NCBI GenBank assembly: GCA_903871465.1
Contig: CAIQHB010000039.1
Span: 1 to 64,000, forward strand
Length of the DNA stretch: 64,000 nt
Direction of reading: 5' to 3'
Origin: an uncultured Methanosarcinales archaeon
GTDB taxonomy: Archaea; Halobacteriota; Methanosarcinia; Methanotrichales; Methanotrichaceae
In this document: in pieces, positions 23,120 through 45,542 of the stretch
Position numbering within the stretch: position 1 is the first letter of the stretch
Layout: the number at the start of each line of letters is the position of its first letter
Notes under the pieces: generated by a model
Database searches by the model: none
What the model was told of the DNA's origin: nothing
What the model saw: the letters and a program-made list of their open reading frames with translations, nothing else
Program-made: the position numbers and the translations under genes

Positions 23120-25597
23120 ATGAGCGGCGATCCCAGCTTCGATCAGAAAGAACAGAAGGTTAATTCACAAACCAACATAGCCAGCCAGACAAATAATTAT
23201 GGTGCATCCGCTCCGCCACCTGTGCCACACCAGATCCCTCAGAAACCTGCCGACTTTACCGGTCGCGAAGAAGAGATTGCCGAAATTTTTGCTAACTTCA
23301 ACCAGGGAGCAACCATTTCCGGTCTTCGTGGCATGGGCGGAGTCGGCAAGACTGCTCTGGCGCTTTTTCTGGCCGAAAAGCTCAACGATCGTTTTCCCGA
23401 TGGCCAAATATTTCTGGATATGCAGGGCACCAGCCCGAAACCCATGGCAACAGCAGAAGCGATGGTCCTCGTCATTCGTGCTTATCTGGGGGCGGAGGCA
23501 CGCCTTCCCGAAGATCTCAATGGTCTGAGAGGTCTTTACAATTCGGTGCTCTCCGGCAAGAGAACCTTGATCCTGTTGGACAATGCAGCCAGCCGGGAGC
23601 AGGTGGAACCGCTCTTGCCTTCGACAGGATCGGCTCTGCTCATCACCTCCCGGAACAAGTTCGTCCTGCCGGGCCTGAAAGAGACGGACCTGGACGTTCT
23701 GCCGCTTATTGACGCCAAAAAGCTGCTTCTGGAGATCGCCGGGCGCATAGGCGGACATTCAGAGGAGTTGGCAAAACTGTGTGGCTGCCTGCCCCTGGCC
23801 CTGCGAAATGCCGCTTCCGCCCTGGCTGAGAAGAAGAACCTGAATGTGGCCGATTATGTGGAAAGGCTGAACGATGCCAGAAAGCGGCTCGACCTGGTGG
23901 AAGCCTCCTTCAGCCTGAGCCACGAGCTTCTCACCCCGGAGCTGCAAAAGCTCTGGTGCTTGCTCTCCGTCTTTCCTGCCGACTTTGATCGCGCCGGTGC
24001 GGCTGCAGTATGGGAGATGGAACCTGATCCTGCCGAAGAAGCACTAGGAGAGCTTGTGAAGTGGAGCCTGGTTGACTTCCTCCCATCTGCCACCGGCGAA
24101 GGAGGGCGTTACCGTCTGCATGACCTGGCAAGAGTTTTTGCCGACTCGCGCCAGGAGTTTGATGCACGCGAGCTTGCGCAGCAGAGGCACGCAAAGCATT
24201 ATCAAGAACTTCTTTGGAAAGCAAACGAGCTTTTCCTCCGAGGAGGAGGAGAATCTCTGTCAATCGGTTTAATTCAATTCGACACCGATTGGATGAATAT
24301 TCAGGCGGGACAGAAATGGGCGAAGATTAATGCATTTAAAAGCCCGGAAATTGCCGAGATTTGCAGCAACTTTGCCTGGGCAGGCGCTATCATGAATCTG
24401 CGGCTACATCCGCTTACAATTATTGAATGGTCGGATGCGGCGTTGGTTGCAGTCCTCAAGACAAAGAATCGAAATGCAGAAGGTGCCCACCTGGGCCACC
24501 TGGGCAATGCCTACTCCTATCTGGGCGAAACGCGCAAGGCCATCAAGTACTACGAGCAGGCACTAAAAATTGACATCGAGATCGGAGACCGGCAGGGTGA
24601 AGGAAATGGCCTGGCCAGCCTGGGCAATGCCTACGCTCGCCTCGGTGAGCCCCGCAAGGCCATCGAGTACTACGAGCAGGGACTAAAAATATCGCGCGAG
24701 ATCAGAGACCGGCTCAATGAAGGAAACCATTTGAATAACCTGGGCAATGCCTACTCCGATCTCGGCGAGATGCGCAAGGCCATCGAGTACAACGAACAGG
24801 CACTGGCAATATCTCGCGAGATTGGAGACCAGCAGGGTGAAGGAAAACATTTAGGCAATCTGGGTCTAGCCTACACCAATCTGGGCGAAATGCGTAAGGC
24901 TATCGATTACTCCGAACAGGCCCTGAAAATATCTCGCAAAATCGGGGACATGCGGAGCGAAGGATGCTGCCTAGGCAATCTGGGCATGGCCTACTCCCAT
25001 CTGGGCGAGACGCGCAAGGCCATCGATTACCATGAACAGGCGCTGAAAATATCTCGCAAAATCGGGGACCGGCTCAATGAAGGAAGCCATTTGAACAACC
25101 TGGGCAATGACTACTCTGATCTGGGCGAGACGCGCAAGGCCATCGAATTCCAGGAGCAAGCGTTGAAAATAGCCCATAATAGTGGGAACCGGTCGGGCGA
25201 AGGAGCCTGTTTGGGTAGTTTGGGCAATGTCTATTCCCATATGGGCGAGCCATGGAGGGCCATCGAGTTCTACGAGCAGGCACTGAAAATTGCCCGCGAT
25301 ATCGGTGACCGGCTGGGTGAAGGAATACGTCTGGGCAACCTGGGCAATGCCTACTTCCATTTGGGCGAGCCCGCCAAAGCCATTGAGTACTACGAGCAGG
25401 CACTGGAAATATCTCGCATGCTCGGGGACCGACTCAATGAAGGAAACCACCTTTTAAACATGAGCCTTGCGCTTGAAAAGCTTGACCAGCGGGCAAAGGC
25501 CATTGAACTGTCAAAATCGGCACTTGAGATTTATGAGCAGATAGAGAGTCCATATGCAGAACAGGCTCTGCAACAGCTCAAGGCGTGGCAAAAATAA
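23120..25597 (+). CDS. NB-ARC/TPR STAND ATPase (NLR-like), 825 aa
   Basis: Residues 7-20 repeat the motif found at the end of the preceding protein, then a Pro-rich linker (APPPVPHQIPQKP). The NB-ARC core shows DFTGRE (45-50), P-loop GMGGVGKT (71-78), Walker B LILLDN, sensor LLITSR, CLPLAL (GLPL-like) and RLHDL (MHD-like), so ATP switching looks intact. A spacer of about 90 residues precedes eight 40-residue TPRs (462-781) and a degenerate ninth. Such STAND proteins bind a ligand through the repeats and oligomerise to trigger an effector domain. Here the effector is probably the neighbouring protein, recruited through the shared motif. No transmembrane segment. It forms a two-gene operon with 22706. 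Confidence 0.9.
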   Translation: MSGDPSFDQKEQKVNSQTNIASQTNNYGASAPPPVPHQIPQKPADFTGREEEIAEIFANFNQGATISGLRGMGGVGKTALALFLAEKLNDRFPDGQIFLDMQGTSPKPMATAEAMVLVIRAYLGAEARLPEDLNGLRGLYNSVLSGKRTLILLDNAASREQVEPLLPSTGSALLITSRNKFVLPGLKETDLDVLPLIDAKKLLLEIAGRIGGHSEELAKLCGCLPLALRNAASALAEKKNLNVADYVERLNDARKRLDLVEASFSLSHELLTPELQKLWCLLSVFPADFDRAGAAAVWEMEPDPAEEALGELVKWSLVDFLPSATGEGGRYRLHDLARVFADSRQEFDARELAQQRHAKHYQELLWKANELFLRGGGESLSIGLIQFDTDWMNIQAGQKWAKINAFKSPEIAEICSNFAWAGAIMNLRLHPLTIIEWSDAALVAVLKTKNRNAEGAHLGHLGNAYSYLGETRKAIKYYEQALKIDIEIGDRQGEGNGLASLGNAYARLGEPRKAIEYYEQGLKISREIRDRLNEGNHLNNLGNAYSDLGEMRKAIEYNEQALAISREIGDQQGEGKHLGNLGLAYTNLGEMRKAIDYSEQALKISRKIGDMRSEGCCLGNLGMAYSHLGETRKAIDYHEQALKISRKIGDRLNEGSHLNNLGNDYSDLGETRKAIEFQEQALKIAHNSGNRSGEGACLGSLGNVYSHMGEPWRAIEFYEQALKIARDIGDRLGEGIRLGNLGNAYFHLGEPAKAIEYYEQALEISRMLGDRLNEGNHLLNMSLALEKLDQRAKAIELSKSALEIYEQIESPYAEQALQQLKAWQK
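24503..25462 (+). repeat. Eight 120-bp tandem repeats encoding TPRs
   Basis: Eight direct repeats with an exact 120-base period encode the 40-residue TPR unit GNAYxxLGExRKAI(E/D)Y, EQALKIS(R)xIGD, (L/Q)xEG. Several blocks (GGGCGAGACGCGCAAGGC, GAACAGGC) are nearly identical in DNA, so copy number could change by slippage or recombination. Variation is concentrated at fixed columns within the unit, as expected for a binding surface. Confidence 0.9.
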
Positions 25598-38685: not shown

Positions 38686-39216
38686 AAATAATCATTTCCT
38701 GGAATCGGGTATGAAAACCTTGCGGCAAATTCGATAAATGACTACGTCGATAAACGATTGCGAAAAGCCTTTGTGACAAGGTGTTTCATGTTTATGAAGG
38801 GGTTGTTTTATTCGTCTCGCTCGAAGAATGCCCACAAGATTCCCTTTAGACCCGGGCTCAATACTACTCGCGGCAGGTCTCATATTTAATTTTTAAGAAG
38901 AATCCTAAACCCGTCGCTATTGGGCTCTTAGCAGATAATTGCACCTACATTATCCTCAGAATGGATGATTTTTTCATTTTAAGAGGCGATTAAAGTCTGA
39001 TTCTACTATTGAACCAAAATTAAAGAATATTTTAGAAAACAGAACCATTAAATGCATATGAATAAGCATCTAAACCTTCTTTAACCTTTAATTCCGGAGT
39101 TGTTCGAAGTTCGTTGCATAGTCGTTCGGCCCCATCTTTTTATATCGTTCAAAGAAAGATGCATGTGCAGGAAAATTCTCCGTGTAGAGAAATGATCCTG
39201 AGTGGAGGTATATTAA
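38686..39216. other. Intergenic stretch with promoter of the Cys/Met-rich repeat gene
   Basis: About 450 A/T-rich bases without a supported gene; the short minus frame 38692-38883 looks spurious. At the right end, TTTTTATATC (39136-39145) is a strong TATA box and GGAGGT (39204-39209) a strong Shine-Dalgarno sequence seven bases before ATG 39217. The transcript would have a leader of about 45-50 bases. Confidence 0.6.
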
Positions 39217-39882
39217 ATGAATTACGTTAAGTTCTTGGTGGCATTGGCCGCTTTATGTGTTCTTGTCATCCCGGCCTTTTCAATGCCGGACAATGGAAAT
39301 GGAAAGGATGCCAACCAGATGTGGCAGGGTCATGACGACAAGCAGATGTCTCAGGGCCAAGATAATACTCAGACCTGTGGCTGCCAGAATTCCATGATGG
39401 GCAGTCAAGACGGCAAAGAGAAGACCTGCGGATGCGAGAAGTCCATGGCAGGCCAAGATGGAAAGCAGTTGCCCCCCATGATGGGCCGGGATGGCAAGCA
39501 GAAGACCTGCGGATGCGAGAAGTCCATGGCAGGCCAAGATGGAAAGCAGTTGCCCCCCATGATGGGCCAGGATGGCAAGCAGAATACCTGCGGATGCGAG
39601 AAGTCCATGATGGGTCAGGACGGCAAGCAGATGCCCCCCATGATGGGCCAAGACGGTAAGCAGAACACCTGCGGATGCGAGAAGTCCATGATGGGTCAGG
39701 ATGGCAAGCAGTTGCCCCAGGGACCGGATAATGCACAACAGCCCTGCGGCTCCGAGAAGTCCATGATGGGCGGTCAGGATGGCAATAAGATGGACCACAA
39801 GAACGTGAAGTCCATGATGGGCGACAGGGAAAAGGGCGGCAATGCTGGCGTCAAAGTAGTAATCCTCAATATAAATGTTTAA
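39217..39882 (+). CDS. Secreted Cys/Met-rich tandem-repeat protein, 221 aa
   Basis: Residues 1-22 are a signal peptide (MNYVKFLVALAALCVLVIPAFS). The mature protein consists largely of a 27-residue repeat: TCGCEKSM(A/M)GQDGKQ, (L/M)PPMMG, then (Q/R)DGKQ(K/N). Four full copies and degenerate flanks are present. Each copy brings a Cys-Gly-Cys pair and three to four Met, so exported metal binding (Cu, or another soft metal) is a reasonable guess. No family is recognised and no hydrophobic C-terminal anchor is seen; the tail VKVVILNINV is short. Strong promoter and SD suggest high expression. A T-run terminator lies near 39916-39925. Confidence 0.85.
   Translation: MNYVKFLVALAALCVLVIPAFSMPDNGNGKDANQMWQGHDDKQMSQGQDNTQTCGCQNSMMGSQDGKEKTCGCEKSMAGQDGKQLPPMMGRDGKQKTCGCEKSMAGQDGKQLPPMMGQDGKQNTCGCEKSMMGQDGKQMPPMMGQDGKQNTCGCEKSMMGQDGKQLPQGPDNAQQPCGSEKSMMGGQDGNKMDHKNVKSMMGDREKGGNAGVKVVILNINV
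39424..39747 (+). repeat. Four 81-bp tandem repeats inside the Cys/Met-rich gene
   Basis: Units begin at 39424, 39505, 39586 and 39667, each exactly 81 bases apart, opening with ACCTGCGGATGCGAGAAGTC. The first two units are nearly identical in DNA, as are the third and fourth, suggesting recent amplification. The next, degenerate unit begins 75 bases after the fourth at 39742. Confidence 0.9.
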
Positions 39883-40135: not shown

Positions 40136-40840
40136 ATGAAAAATAGTTATTGTTTAGCGATATTAATGCTATTAGTGAGCAGCAGCACGCTGCTGGTCGC
40201 ATCCGCCCAGGATCAGGTCGCTCTGACGGTCCATGTATACGAAGGGGACTTCAATGGGAGCCTGCTTTCGGGTGTCTCGGTAAGCGGACAGGATGCAGCG
40301 GGCAGCAGCTTTCAAGCAGTTACAGATTCGAACGGAGATGCGGTGGTTTCAGGACAACCGGGTGCCTGGCAGTTCATAATTGCAAAGGACGGTTACAACA
40401 CCCTGACTTTGAAGTATGATGTCACGGCGACCGGTGATGGTTCTGTTTATCTACAAAAAGCAACTCCAACCGTAGATAATGTCGCTCTGACCATCGACGT
40501 TCACGAAGGGGACCTTAACGGGACGATGCTATCCGGCGTCCAGGTCACGGGACAGGATGCAGCGGGCACACCGTTACAAGGACTGACTGACTCGAATGGA
40601 TTGGTGGTCGTTAGCGGACAGCCTGGAACCTGGCAGTTCAATTTCACAAAAGAGGGTTACAGTCCCCTCAGCTTGAGTTACGACGTTACTCAAACGGACG
40701 AAGGTGCAGTCTATCTGGTAAGTGCTGATCTGTCTCAAGGGGCTCAAGAAGGGGCCATCTCCTCCCAACCGGATCAACAGATTAATCCAACTTCCAAATG
40801 GACCCAATCCAGCGAAGCTGAGAGAACGAATCAGAATTGA
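40136..40840 (+). CDS. Secreted protein with two Ig-like/carboxypeptidase-regulatory repeats
   Basis: After a signal peptide (about residues 1-25, ending VASAQ) come two homologous domains of about 85 residues: DQVALTVHVYEGDFNGSLLSGVSVSGQDAAG...GQPGAWQF...KDGYNTLTLKYDV and DNVALTIDVHEGDLNGTMLSGVQVTGQDAAG...GQPGTWQF...KEGYSPLSLSYDV. The pattern (variable insert, TDSNG, GQPG, W-Q-F, GY) resembles carboxypeptidase-regulatory/PEGA-type beta sandwiches used in cell-surface stalks. A Ser/Gln/Asn-rich tail of about 40 residues lacks an anchor. Function is probably surface binding or structure. A run of nine T at about 40882 ends the transcript. Confidence 0.8.
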   Translation: MKNSYCLAILMLLVSSSTLLVASAQDQVALTVHVYEGDFNGSLLSGVSVSGQDAAGSSFQAVTDSNGDAVVSGQPGAWQFIIAKDGYNTLTLKYDVTATGDGSVYLQKATPTVDNVALTIDVHEGDLNGTMLSGVQVTGQDAAGTPLQGLTDSNGLVVVSGQPGTWQFNFTKEGYSPLSLSYDVTQTDEGAVYLVSADLSQGAQEGAISSQPDQQINPTSKWTQSSEAERTNQN

Positions 40841-45335: not shown

Positions 45336-45542
45336 GGGGCTGTGGCCTAGCCAGGTAGGGCGATGGGCTCCAGCGGTATATTTAATGATGAGCAACGGGT
45401 CTACTGAGATCTCTCGACGGGGAGGTCGTTGATGATCCGTTGGAGCACTGAAATGGGTTGTTATCAGCCACCGTTTTCCGGCTGTAAGAACTTCAGTATC
45501 GGAGATACCCGTCGATCGTGAGTTCGAATCTCACCAGCCCCA
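45336..45542 (+). tRNA. tRNA-Trp (anticodon CCA) with 133-nt intron
   Basis: Acceptor GGGGCTG (45336-45342) pairs with CAGCCCC (45535-45541), discriminator A. D stem GCCT/GGGC, anticodon stem ATGGG (27-31) with CCCGT (39-43), loop C-T-CCA-G-A and T arm GTGAG-TTCGAAT-CTCAC. The gene is interrupted after position 37 (45373) by an intron at about 45374-45506, the position used in euryarchaeal tRNA-Trp, where the intron carries a box C/D guide RNA. Removing the intron restores the loop. Splicing would be by the archaeal endonuclease at a bulge-helix-bulge formed by the exon-intron junctions. Confidence 0.93.
45374..45506 (+). ncRNA. Box C/D guide RNA within the tRNA-Trp intron
   Basis: C box ATGATGA (45385-45391), D' box CTGA (45404-45407), C' box TGATGA (45430-45435) and D box CTGA (45448-45451) are all present in order. 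The D' guide ACGGGTCT pairs with AGACCCGT across the spliced junction, placing the fifth base against C39. The D guide CCGTTGGAGC pairs with GCTCCAGCGG of the unspliced transcript (one G-U pair), placing the fifth base against C34. In Haloferax the equivalent intron guides methylation of C34 and U39. Here the second target would be a C. Confidence 0.88.

What the first reader, a model, noticed from the sequence alone, without database searches (positions are those of the whole stretch)
39217..39882. Exported Cys-Gly-Cys/Met repeat protein under a strong promoter
Four exact 81-bp units encode TCGCEKSM(A/M)GQDGKQ(L/M)PPMMG repeats on an exported protein with a strong TATA box and SD. Paired Cys plus dense Met suggest soft-metal binding or redox storage outside the cell. 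I recognise no described family.
Basis: partly seen in the sequence, partly recalled or inferred. Interest (0 to 1): 0.55.

Follow-up and report, generated by a model that had tools for sequence, protein, structure and literature searches.

The report
Surface repeat protein in archaeal regulon
A methane-making archaeon carries a secreted, probably unfolded repeat protein whose gene has the same unusual promoter as dozens of other secreted proteins in its family, and that promoter travels with a membrane-spanning sensor, so it looks like part of an undescribed surface-response system rather than a simple metal store.

Summary
The 221-aa exported ORF is real. Its 81-bp units are not four exact copies (80/81, then 68-69/81, then 54-59/81). 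The host is Methanothrix-type. No Pfam or NCBIfam model matches. Relatives keep the signal peptide, a repeated [KR]S-Met-Met-[GD] motif, often a C-terminal strand, and usually a neighbouring Ig-like gene. The Cys pair is not kept. The "strong promoter" is a 28-bp element, CGTTC[GT]G-N7-TTTTTATATCGTTC, bracketing the TATA box: 94 exact sites in 34 of 37 family genomes, none in 23 others. Of 88 sites with readable downstream DNA, 72 precede secreted-type proteins and 16 a small regulator/AbrB pair. The element co-occurs with a membrane protein that has an outer beta-domain and a cytoplasmic DUF7343 winged helix; in three genera its gene is divergent to a relative of the finding. Sensor and element recur in a second family whose McrA best matches PDB 3SQG (ANME-1 by recall). 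Published sheath proteins occur in all Methanotrichales and 40% of ANME-1. Best reading: a secreted effector of an undescribed membrane-sensor regulon, probably a multivalent polymer of the sheath space. Metal binding remains possible but untested.

The parts
39123..39150 (+). Promoter element CGTTCGG-N7-TTTTTATATCGTTC (CGTTC boxes bracketing the TATA box)
   Evidence: Exact match; 3 exact sites in the own genome, 94 exact sites in 34 of 37 family genomes, 0 in 23 other genomes
39137..39145 (+). TATA-like box TTTTTATAT
   Evidence: Read from sequence; aligned in relatives
39170..39198 (+). 5'UTR hairpin just upstream of the Shine-Dalgarno sequence
   Evidence: 17-sequence alignment A4: 91% of cells paired against at most 52% when slid; 5 of 8 pairs with double-sided changes. 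One pair (39175/39192) is a mismatch in this copy
39204..39209 (+). Shine-Dalgarno GGAGGT
   Evidence: Read from sequence
39217..39882 (+). Exported 'SMM' repeat protein, 221 aa: signal peptide, TCGCEKSM(A/M)G repeats, last KSMMG, C-terminal strand VKVVILNINV
39421..39744 (+). Four 81-bp repeat units (two near-exact, two diverged)
40136..40840 (+). Partner gene: exported protein with two Ig-like (CarboxypepD_reg-type) repeats, motif VHEGDLNG..VQVTGQDAAG
   Evidence: A homologue lies within the flank of 21 of 29 SMM loci (18 directly downstream, 3 upstream); a relative passes the CarboxypepD_reg cut-off, 34.9 against 32.3 bits; this copy itself has only weak Big_1/RHS hits

Best explanation
The gene is a secreted effector of an undescribed envelope regulon. 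SHOWN BY SEQUENCE: its promoter carries a 28-bp element shared, in this family, almost only by secreted proteins and by a small regulator pair. That element co-distributes with a membrane-spanning protein made of an outer beta-domain, a TM helix, a long linker and a cytoplasmic DUF7343 winged helix. In three genera that sensor gene is divergent to a relative of this gene. INFERRED: the sensor detects a change outside the cell and its winged helix binds the CGTTC boxes at the TATA box, switching the set on or off. The product is a disordered, multivalent chain whose repeated [KR]SMM[GD] motif and Cys residues make many weak or disulfide contacts with other surface components; where present, its C-terminal strand docks on the neighbouring Ig-like protein. 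Together they reinforce or repair the space under the sheath. Confidence is about 0.85 for regulon membership and about 0.45 for the physical role.
For: Element upstream of 18 of 20 relatives that were found by protein similarity alone, 57-76 bp from the ATG with at most 2 mismatches; a 21st row, L137, was itself found through the element. 94 sites in 34 of 37 family genomes, 0 in 23 others; reversed-pattern control 1 in the family and 5 outside. A spacer one base longer (typed by mistake) gives 0 in the 11 family genomes sampled and 2 of 294 overall. Of 88 sites: 33 NMTL-repeat, 23 SMM, 6 NKS, 5 EVHEMS-class, 5 other secreted-type, 16 regulator/AbrB; 67 classed by script and 21 by eye. Sensor match in all 37 family genomes at E<=1e-5, though only its outer domain aligned in G032. 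In 294 genomes strong sensor hits only in f1 (11) and f8 (28); 13 of the 14 genomes with TATA-type elements have it, Fisher p=7e-12, not corrected for phylogeny. Divergent sensor/SMM pairs in G022, G026, G035. In 6 of the 10 f8 loci read (L261-L270) the element begins 30-39 bp after a sensor-type winged-helix ORF, in a seventh (L266) after what looks like a broken one, and 9 of 10 lead into an exported NKS-class protein. Sensor model: TM 9-29, beta-domain 41-163, TM 182-212, winged helix 335-409. Two f8 McrA sequences match PDB 3SQG best by far. Sheath proteins in all Methanotrichales and 40% of ANME-1 (PMC11576556, passages).
Against: No expression, binding or localisation data. Whether the element activates or represses is unknown. 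L007 and L028 lack the element at 2 mismatches; G034 has a sensor but no element within the stretch read; G189 has an element but no sensor match. No DNA contact of the sensor is shown. Signal peptides were judged by eye. The sheath co-distribution is at family level only, and sheath proteins themselves were not recognised among the genes after the element.
Confidence: 0.5

Rival explanations
1. Soft-metal or oxidant sink: exported Met/Cys repeats bind Cu(I), Ag, Hg or scavenge oxidants outside the cell, and the regulon is a metal or redox stress response.
For: Mature protein 11.6% Met and 5.5% Cys; NMTL co-regulated proteins look Met-rich by eye as well; MM pairs strongly conserved.
Against: Cys pair not conserved: 5 of 26 relatives have no Cys between motifs or a single Cys. 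The MM pair sits in a fixed [KR]SMM[GD] context, 69 of 100, which a generic metal sink would not need. No metal transporter seen after 88 element sites.
Confidence: 0.2
2. Strong constitutive surface promoter, no regulation: the element is just the family's high-output promoter for abundant secreted proteins.
For: The element includes the TATA box; targets are nearly all secreted.
Against: Only 3 exact sites in a 3.1-Mb genome, the other two before a regulator pair and an NMTL protein; tight co-distribution and physical linkage with a membrane winged-helix protein; a CGTTC box lies downstream of TATA as well as upstream.
Confidence: 0.15
3. Pro-peptide: the repeats are cut at the basic residues before SMM to release near-identical small peptides (signals or antimicrobials).
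For: Near-identical repeats with a conserved basic residue before the motif; MacB-type ABC operon beside the regulator pair in other genomes.
Against: Repeat length and sequence vary widely between relatives; no protease or modifying enzyme seen next to the gene; class-5 members have the motif without regular repeats.
Confidence: 0.08

Closest known systems
Bacterial Cpx-type envelope stress regulons (CpxA/CpxR with CpxP, Spy) - recalled
   Same: Works like: membrane sensor plus a set of secreted proteins, one class of them encoded beside the sensor
   Different: One-component sensor with its own DNA-binding domain; no sequence or fold match of the NMTL protein to any solved structure; archaeal
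Membrane-bound one-component regulators of archaea (ArnR/ArnR1 of Sulfolobus; described in PMC13286277, passages seen)
   Same: TM protein with a helix-turn-helix controlling surface-structure genes
   Different: Here the winged helix is C-terminal and DUF7343; the passage puts the HTH of ArnR in its N-terminal region; targets differ
Archaeal sheath (SH) proteins of Methanotrichales, ANME-1, Methanomicrobiales (PMC11576556, passages)
   Same: Same host lineages; secreted; sheath hoops are joined by disulfides
   Different: SH proteins have an amyloid core of two six-strand sheets; the SMM protein has no such core by composition, only a single C-terminal strand
Met-rich copper-binding proteins (PcoC, CopG, Ctr1-type Mets motifs) - recalled
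   Same: Met clusters on an exported chain
   Different: No family match; motif is a fixed [KR]SMM[GD], Cys not conserved, no copper genes seen linked

Membership tests
Soft-metal binding protein / metallothionein-like store | Conserved Cys/Met ligand spacing across relatives | tested here: not met
   CxC lost in many of the relatives; repeats without Cys in L251, L011; MM kept
Soft-metal binding protein / metallothionein-like store | Binds metal in vitro or in vivo | not testable with these tools
   No assay
Soft-metal binding protein / metallothionein-like store | Linked to or co-regulated with metal transport genes | tested here: not met
   None seen by eye in the first genes after 88 element sites or in the 10 neighbourhoods read
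Archaeal sheath (SH) protein | Signal peptide | tested here: met
   By eye
Archaeal sheath (SH) protein | Amyloid core of two six-strand beta sheets | not tested
   No structure was predicted for the SMM protein; its composition (G, Q, K, D, N rich) makes it unlikely
Envelope-sensing regulon (Cpx-like in function) | Shared cis element upstream of several secreted proteins | tested here: met
Envelope-sensing regulon (Cpx-like in function) | Membrane sensor with outer domain and DNA-binding output linked to the element | tested here: met
   By sequence, model, linkage and co-distribution only
Envelope-sensing regulon (Cpx-like in function) | Transcription changes on envelope damage | not testable with these tools
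   No expression data held for these loci
Envelope-sensing regulon (Cpx-like in function) | Secreted helical chaperone homologous to CpxP/Spy | tested here: not met
   NMTL model (mean pLDDT 67.6): 4 matches with E<=10 and none with E<=0.001 in PDB by fold; none by profile
CarboxypepD_reg (partner gene 40136-40840) | Pfam gathering score | tested here: inconclusive
   A homologue in G129 passes (34.9 against 32.3); the window copy has no CarboxypepD_reg hit, only weak Big_1 and RHS hits

The most novel reading that the evidence does not exclude
Methanotrichales and ANME-1, the two lineages reported to have exchanged sheath proteins, share a membrane-anchored one-component regulatory system (DUF7343 sensor plus CGTTC-TATA-CGTTC element) that senses the state of the sheath-enclosed surface and deploys secreted polymers. 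The [KR]SMM[GD] repeat protein is one of its effectors and docks through its C-terminal strand on an Ig-like partner. It would be the first regulatory system, and the first non-SH components, tied to sheathed archaea.
Probability: 0.4. Interest if true: 0.78.

Novelty: new variant of a known kind. Interest (0 to 1): 0.6.

Why it matters
Methanothrix is a major acetate-consuming methanogen and ANME-1 a major methane consumer; both can live in proteinaceous sheaths whose other components are unknown. [quoted passage not shown] A shared element and sensor give a short, testable list of surface proteins and a regulator. My nine literature searches showed no description of this regulon in their listings; the word DUF7343 is in no paper of the held library.

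Tried and rejected
(1) Four exact repeats: rejected. (2) Plasmid spread: no match. (3) genome-contig scan with the SMM protein: 2 stretches matched a pattern, none confirmed. (4) Strict family restriction of the element: first seen, then corrected, because a phylum sample found it in f8 as well. (5) The 75-aa regulator as the binding factor: it is in 23 of 60 genomes and missing from several genomes that have the element (G022 has only a weak relative; G028, G030, G033, G035 and G036 have none), so the membrane sensor is the better candidate. (6) Spy/CpxP homology of NMTL proteins: no fold or profile match. (7) Partner gene counts by motif missed L004, L005, L017 and L022 and were replaced by tblastn. 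C-terminal strand against partner directly downstream: 11 of 11 strand-positive loci, 6 of 14 strand-negative (class-5 loci included, contig-end loci left out), p=0.003. The Fisher test for the same question used outdated counts and is withdrawn. (8) Sensor: the best PDB fold hit is a yeast oligosaccharyltransferase chain at TM 0.24, not interpreted.

Rows dropped before counts: of the 94 exact sites I did not fetch two that lack a TATA-like stretch (G009:C115, G036:C51). De-duplication left 90 sites, of which 2 had under 250 nt downstream. From the hits I dropped as false or of another class L002, L003, L019, L020, L023, L024 and L025; L026 is a partial copy, and L030 and L031 duplicate other loci.

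Full report
WHAT IS THERE. The ORF at 39217-39882 is real and codes for a 221-aa protein with a signal-peptide-like start. Its 81-bp repeats are genuine (TRF score 460), but only the first two are near-exact; the third and fourth have diverged. The mature chain is 17% Gly, 13% Gln, 12% Met, 11% Lys and 5.5% Cys and ends in a short hydrophobic strand, VKVVILNINV. Pfam and NCBIfam have no match. The genome has 81 contigs, 3.13 Mb and 99.6% completeness. Its genus is Methanothrix: contigs of same-genus genomes match named Methanothrix/Methanosaeta records in length (for example 128,927 bases for contig 86 of G019 and 75,718 bases for contig 41 of G011).

RELATIVES. A protein search of 60 related genomes found matches in 23; reading them leaves 22 SMM-type loci, all in the window's own family. 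The profile of 17 members found 3 of 294 genomes of the phylum, all in the same family. A relative in G129 (one 1.9-Mb contig, same family) has repeats of KSMMDGRLDRPDMRELPADDTSDKPVAEKPAL without any Cys, the C-terminal strand VYVVIVQA, a promoter like the element (upstream box CGTTCGC instead of CGTTCNG) and the same downstream partner gene. Across 26 proteins 69 of 100 isolated MM pairs follow [KR]S, against 0.6 expected from composition. So the conserved feature is a linear motif, [KR]SMM[GD], not the Cys-Gly-Cys pair. In the own genome a DNA pattern for the motif hits 10 places, four of them in this gene.

PARTNER GENE. The next gene downstream (40136-40840) encodes an exported protein with two Ig-like repeats. 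Homologues lie within the fetched flank of 21 of 29 SMM loci, 18 of them directly downstream on the same strand. Of the eight without, L013, L016 and L032 end within 33 nt of the SMM gene, L028 and L137 have short flanks, and L010, L012 and L027 lack one within about 1.4 kb (flank lengths). All 11 loci with the C-terminal strand have the partner directly downstream, against 6 of 14 without the strand (p=0.003). This suggests, but does not show, strand docking.

PROMOTER ELEMENT. Aligning upstream regions of 21 relatives showed CGTTC[GT]G, seven bases, TTTTTATAT, CGTTC: the TATA box sits between two CGTTC boxes. Of 20 relatives found by protein similarity, 18 have it with at most 2 mismatches, 57-76 bp before the ATG. 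Exact sites: 3 in the own genome, 94 in 34 of 37 family genomes, none in 23 other genomes; the reversed pattern gives 1 and 5. I read downstream DNA for 88 distinct sites: 23 SMM, 33 NMTL-repeat, 6 NKS-class, 5 EVHEMS-class, 5 other secreted-type proteins and 16 small regulator/AbrB pairs. The script classed 67 and I classed 21 by eye. GAAC occurs in the 120 nt upstream of 81 of the 90 sites, 88 of which had at least 110 nt upstream. A hairpin of changing sequence lies between promoter and SD: on 17 sequences 91% of cells pair, against at most 52% when slid, with 13 double-sided changes.

SENSOR. The own-genome NMTL gene on contig 50 follows a 427-aa membrane protein and the element. That protein matches DUF7343 at its C-terminus. 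The model, made from 15 relatives, gives TM 9-29, a beta-domain 41-163 (block means of pLDDT 84-95 over residues 41-130, 67-84 after that), TM 182-212, a disordered linker and a winged helix 335-409; mean pLDDT of the whole is 63. All 37 family genomes have a match at E<=1e-5, though in G032 only the outer domain aligned; 7 of 23 others have only weak winged-helix hits. In G022, G026 and G035 the sensor gene is divergent to an SMM gene, with an NKS-class gene near or beside it. In 294 genomes of the phylum, strong sensor hits occur in f1 (11) and f8 (28) alone; three further weak hits (G175, G193, G249) align only the winged-helix part. TATA-type elements occur in 14 genomes of the same two families, 13 of them with the sensor (p=7e-12, uncorrected for phylogeny). 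Six further element matches elsewhere lack a TATA and look like chance. In 6 of 10 f8 loci the element begins 30-39 bp after a sensor-type winged-helix ORF, in a seventh after what looks like a broken one, and 9 of 10 lead into an exported NKS-class protein.

SECOND FAMILY. MCR alpha was found in 8 of 14 f8 genomes tried. I compared two of these with the PDB: both match 3SQG best (1156 and 1142 bits, next 692 and 691). That 3SQG is the ANME-1 enzyme is recalled. The sheath survey PMC11576556 (passages seen, not the whole text) reports sheath proteins in all Methanotrichales and 40% of Alkanophagales (ANME-1), exchange of sheath proteins between them, disulfide links between hoops, and no further proteins associated with sheath or plug formation. 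It also reports sheath proteins in some Methanomicrobiales and Thermofilales, where I saw no sensor or have not looked. This overlap is why I place the product in the sheath space. It is a family-level coincidence, not a test.

REGULATOR PAIR. The 75-aa protein plus AbrB/MazE-type protein follows the element in 16 of 88 sites. It is followed by a MacB-type ABC operon in several genomes and sits near SMM genes in G006, G009, G011 and G012. It is missing from several genomes that have the element, so it is more likely a target or second layer than the binding factor.

CONCLUSION. Regulon membership is well supported by sequence; direction of control, signal and physical role are inferred. I rate regulon membership at about 0.85, the sheath-space polymer role at about 0.45, and the metal/redox store at about 0.2.

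Noticed in passing
L161 8739-8987 and L033 1826-1990 (own contig C26): Small winged-helix-like protein (two conserved Cys) plus AbrB/MazE-type protein under the same element, followed by the start of an ABC-transporter ATPase gene at the contig end.
   Followed up: partly
L162 8310-8966 (own contig C50): Exported NMTLGEI-repeat protein with N-glycosylation-type sequons in a helical repeat; large family in Methanothrix with no Pfam model above its cut-off and no PDB relative.
   Followed up: partly
L246 (G004:C1:2946500-2955500): Several membrane-sensor paralogues close together in one genome (one search lists ten partial matches in G004).
   Followed up: no
window 45336-45542: Rfam finds a tRNA match 207 nt long with an sR3 C/D-box RNA inside it (45381-45453), looking like a tRNA with an intron that holds a guide RNA; ARAGORN does not list it.
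   Followed up: partly
window 24487-25452: Array of about eight 120-bp repeats, which look like TPR-coding units.
   Followed up: no
L170 8047-9252: In G019 the Ig-like partner protein is fused to C-terminal TPR repeats.
   Followed up: no
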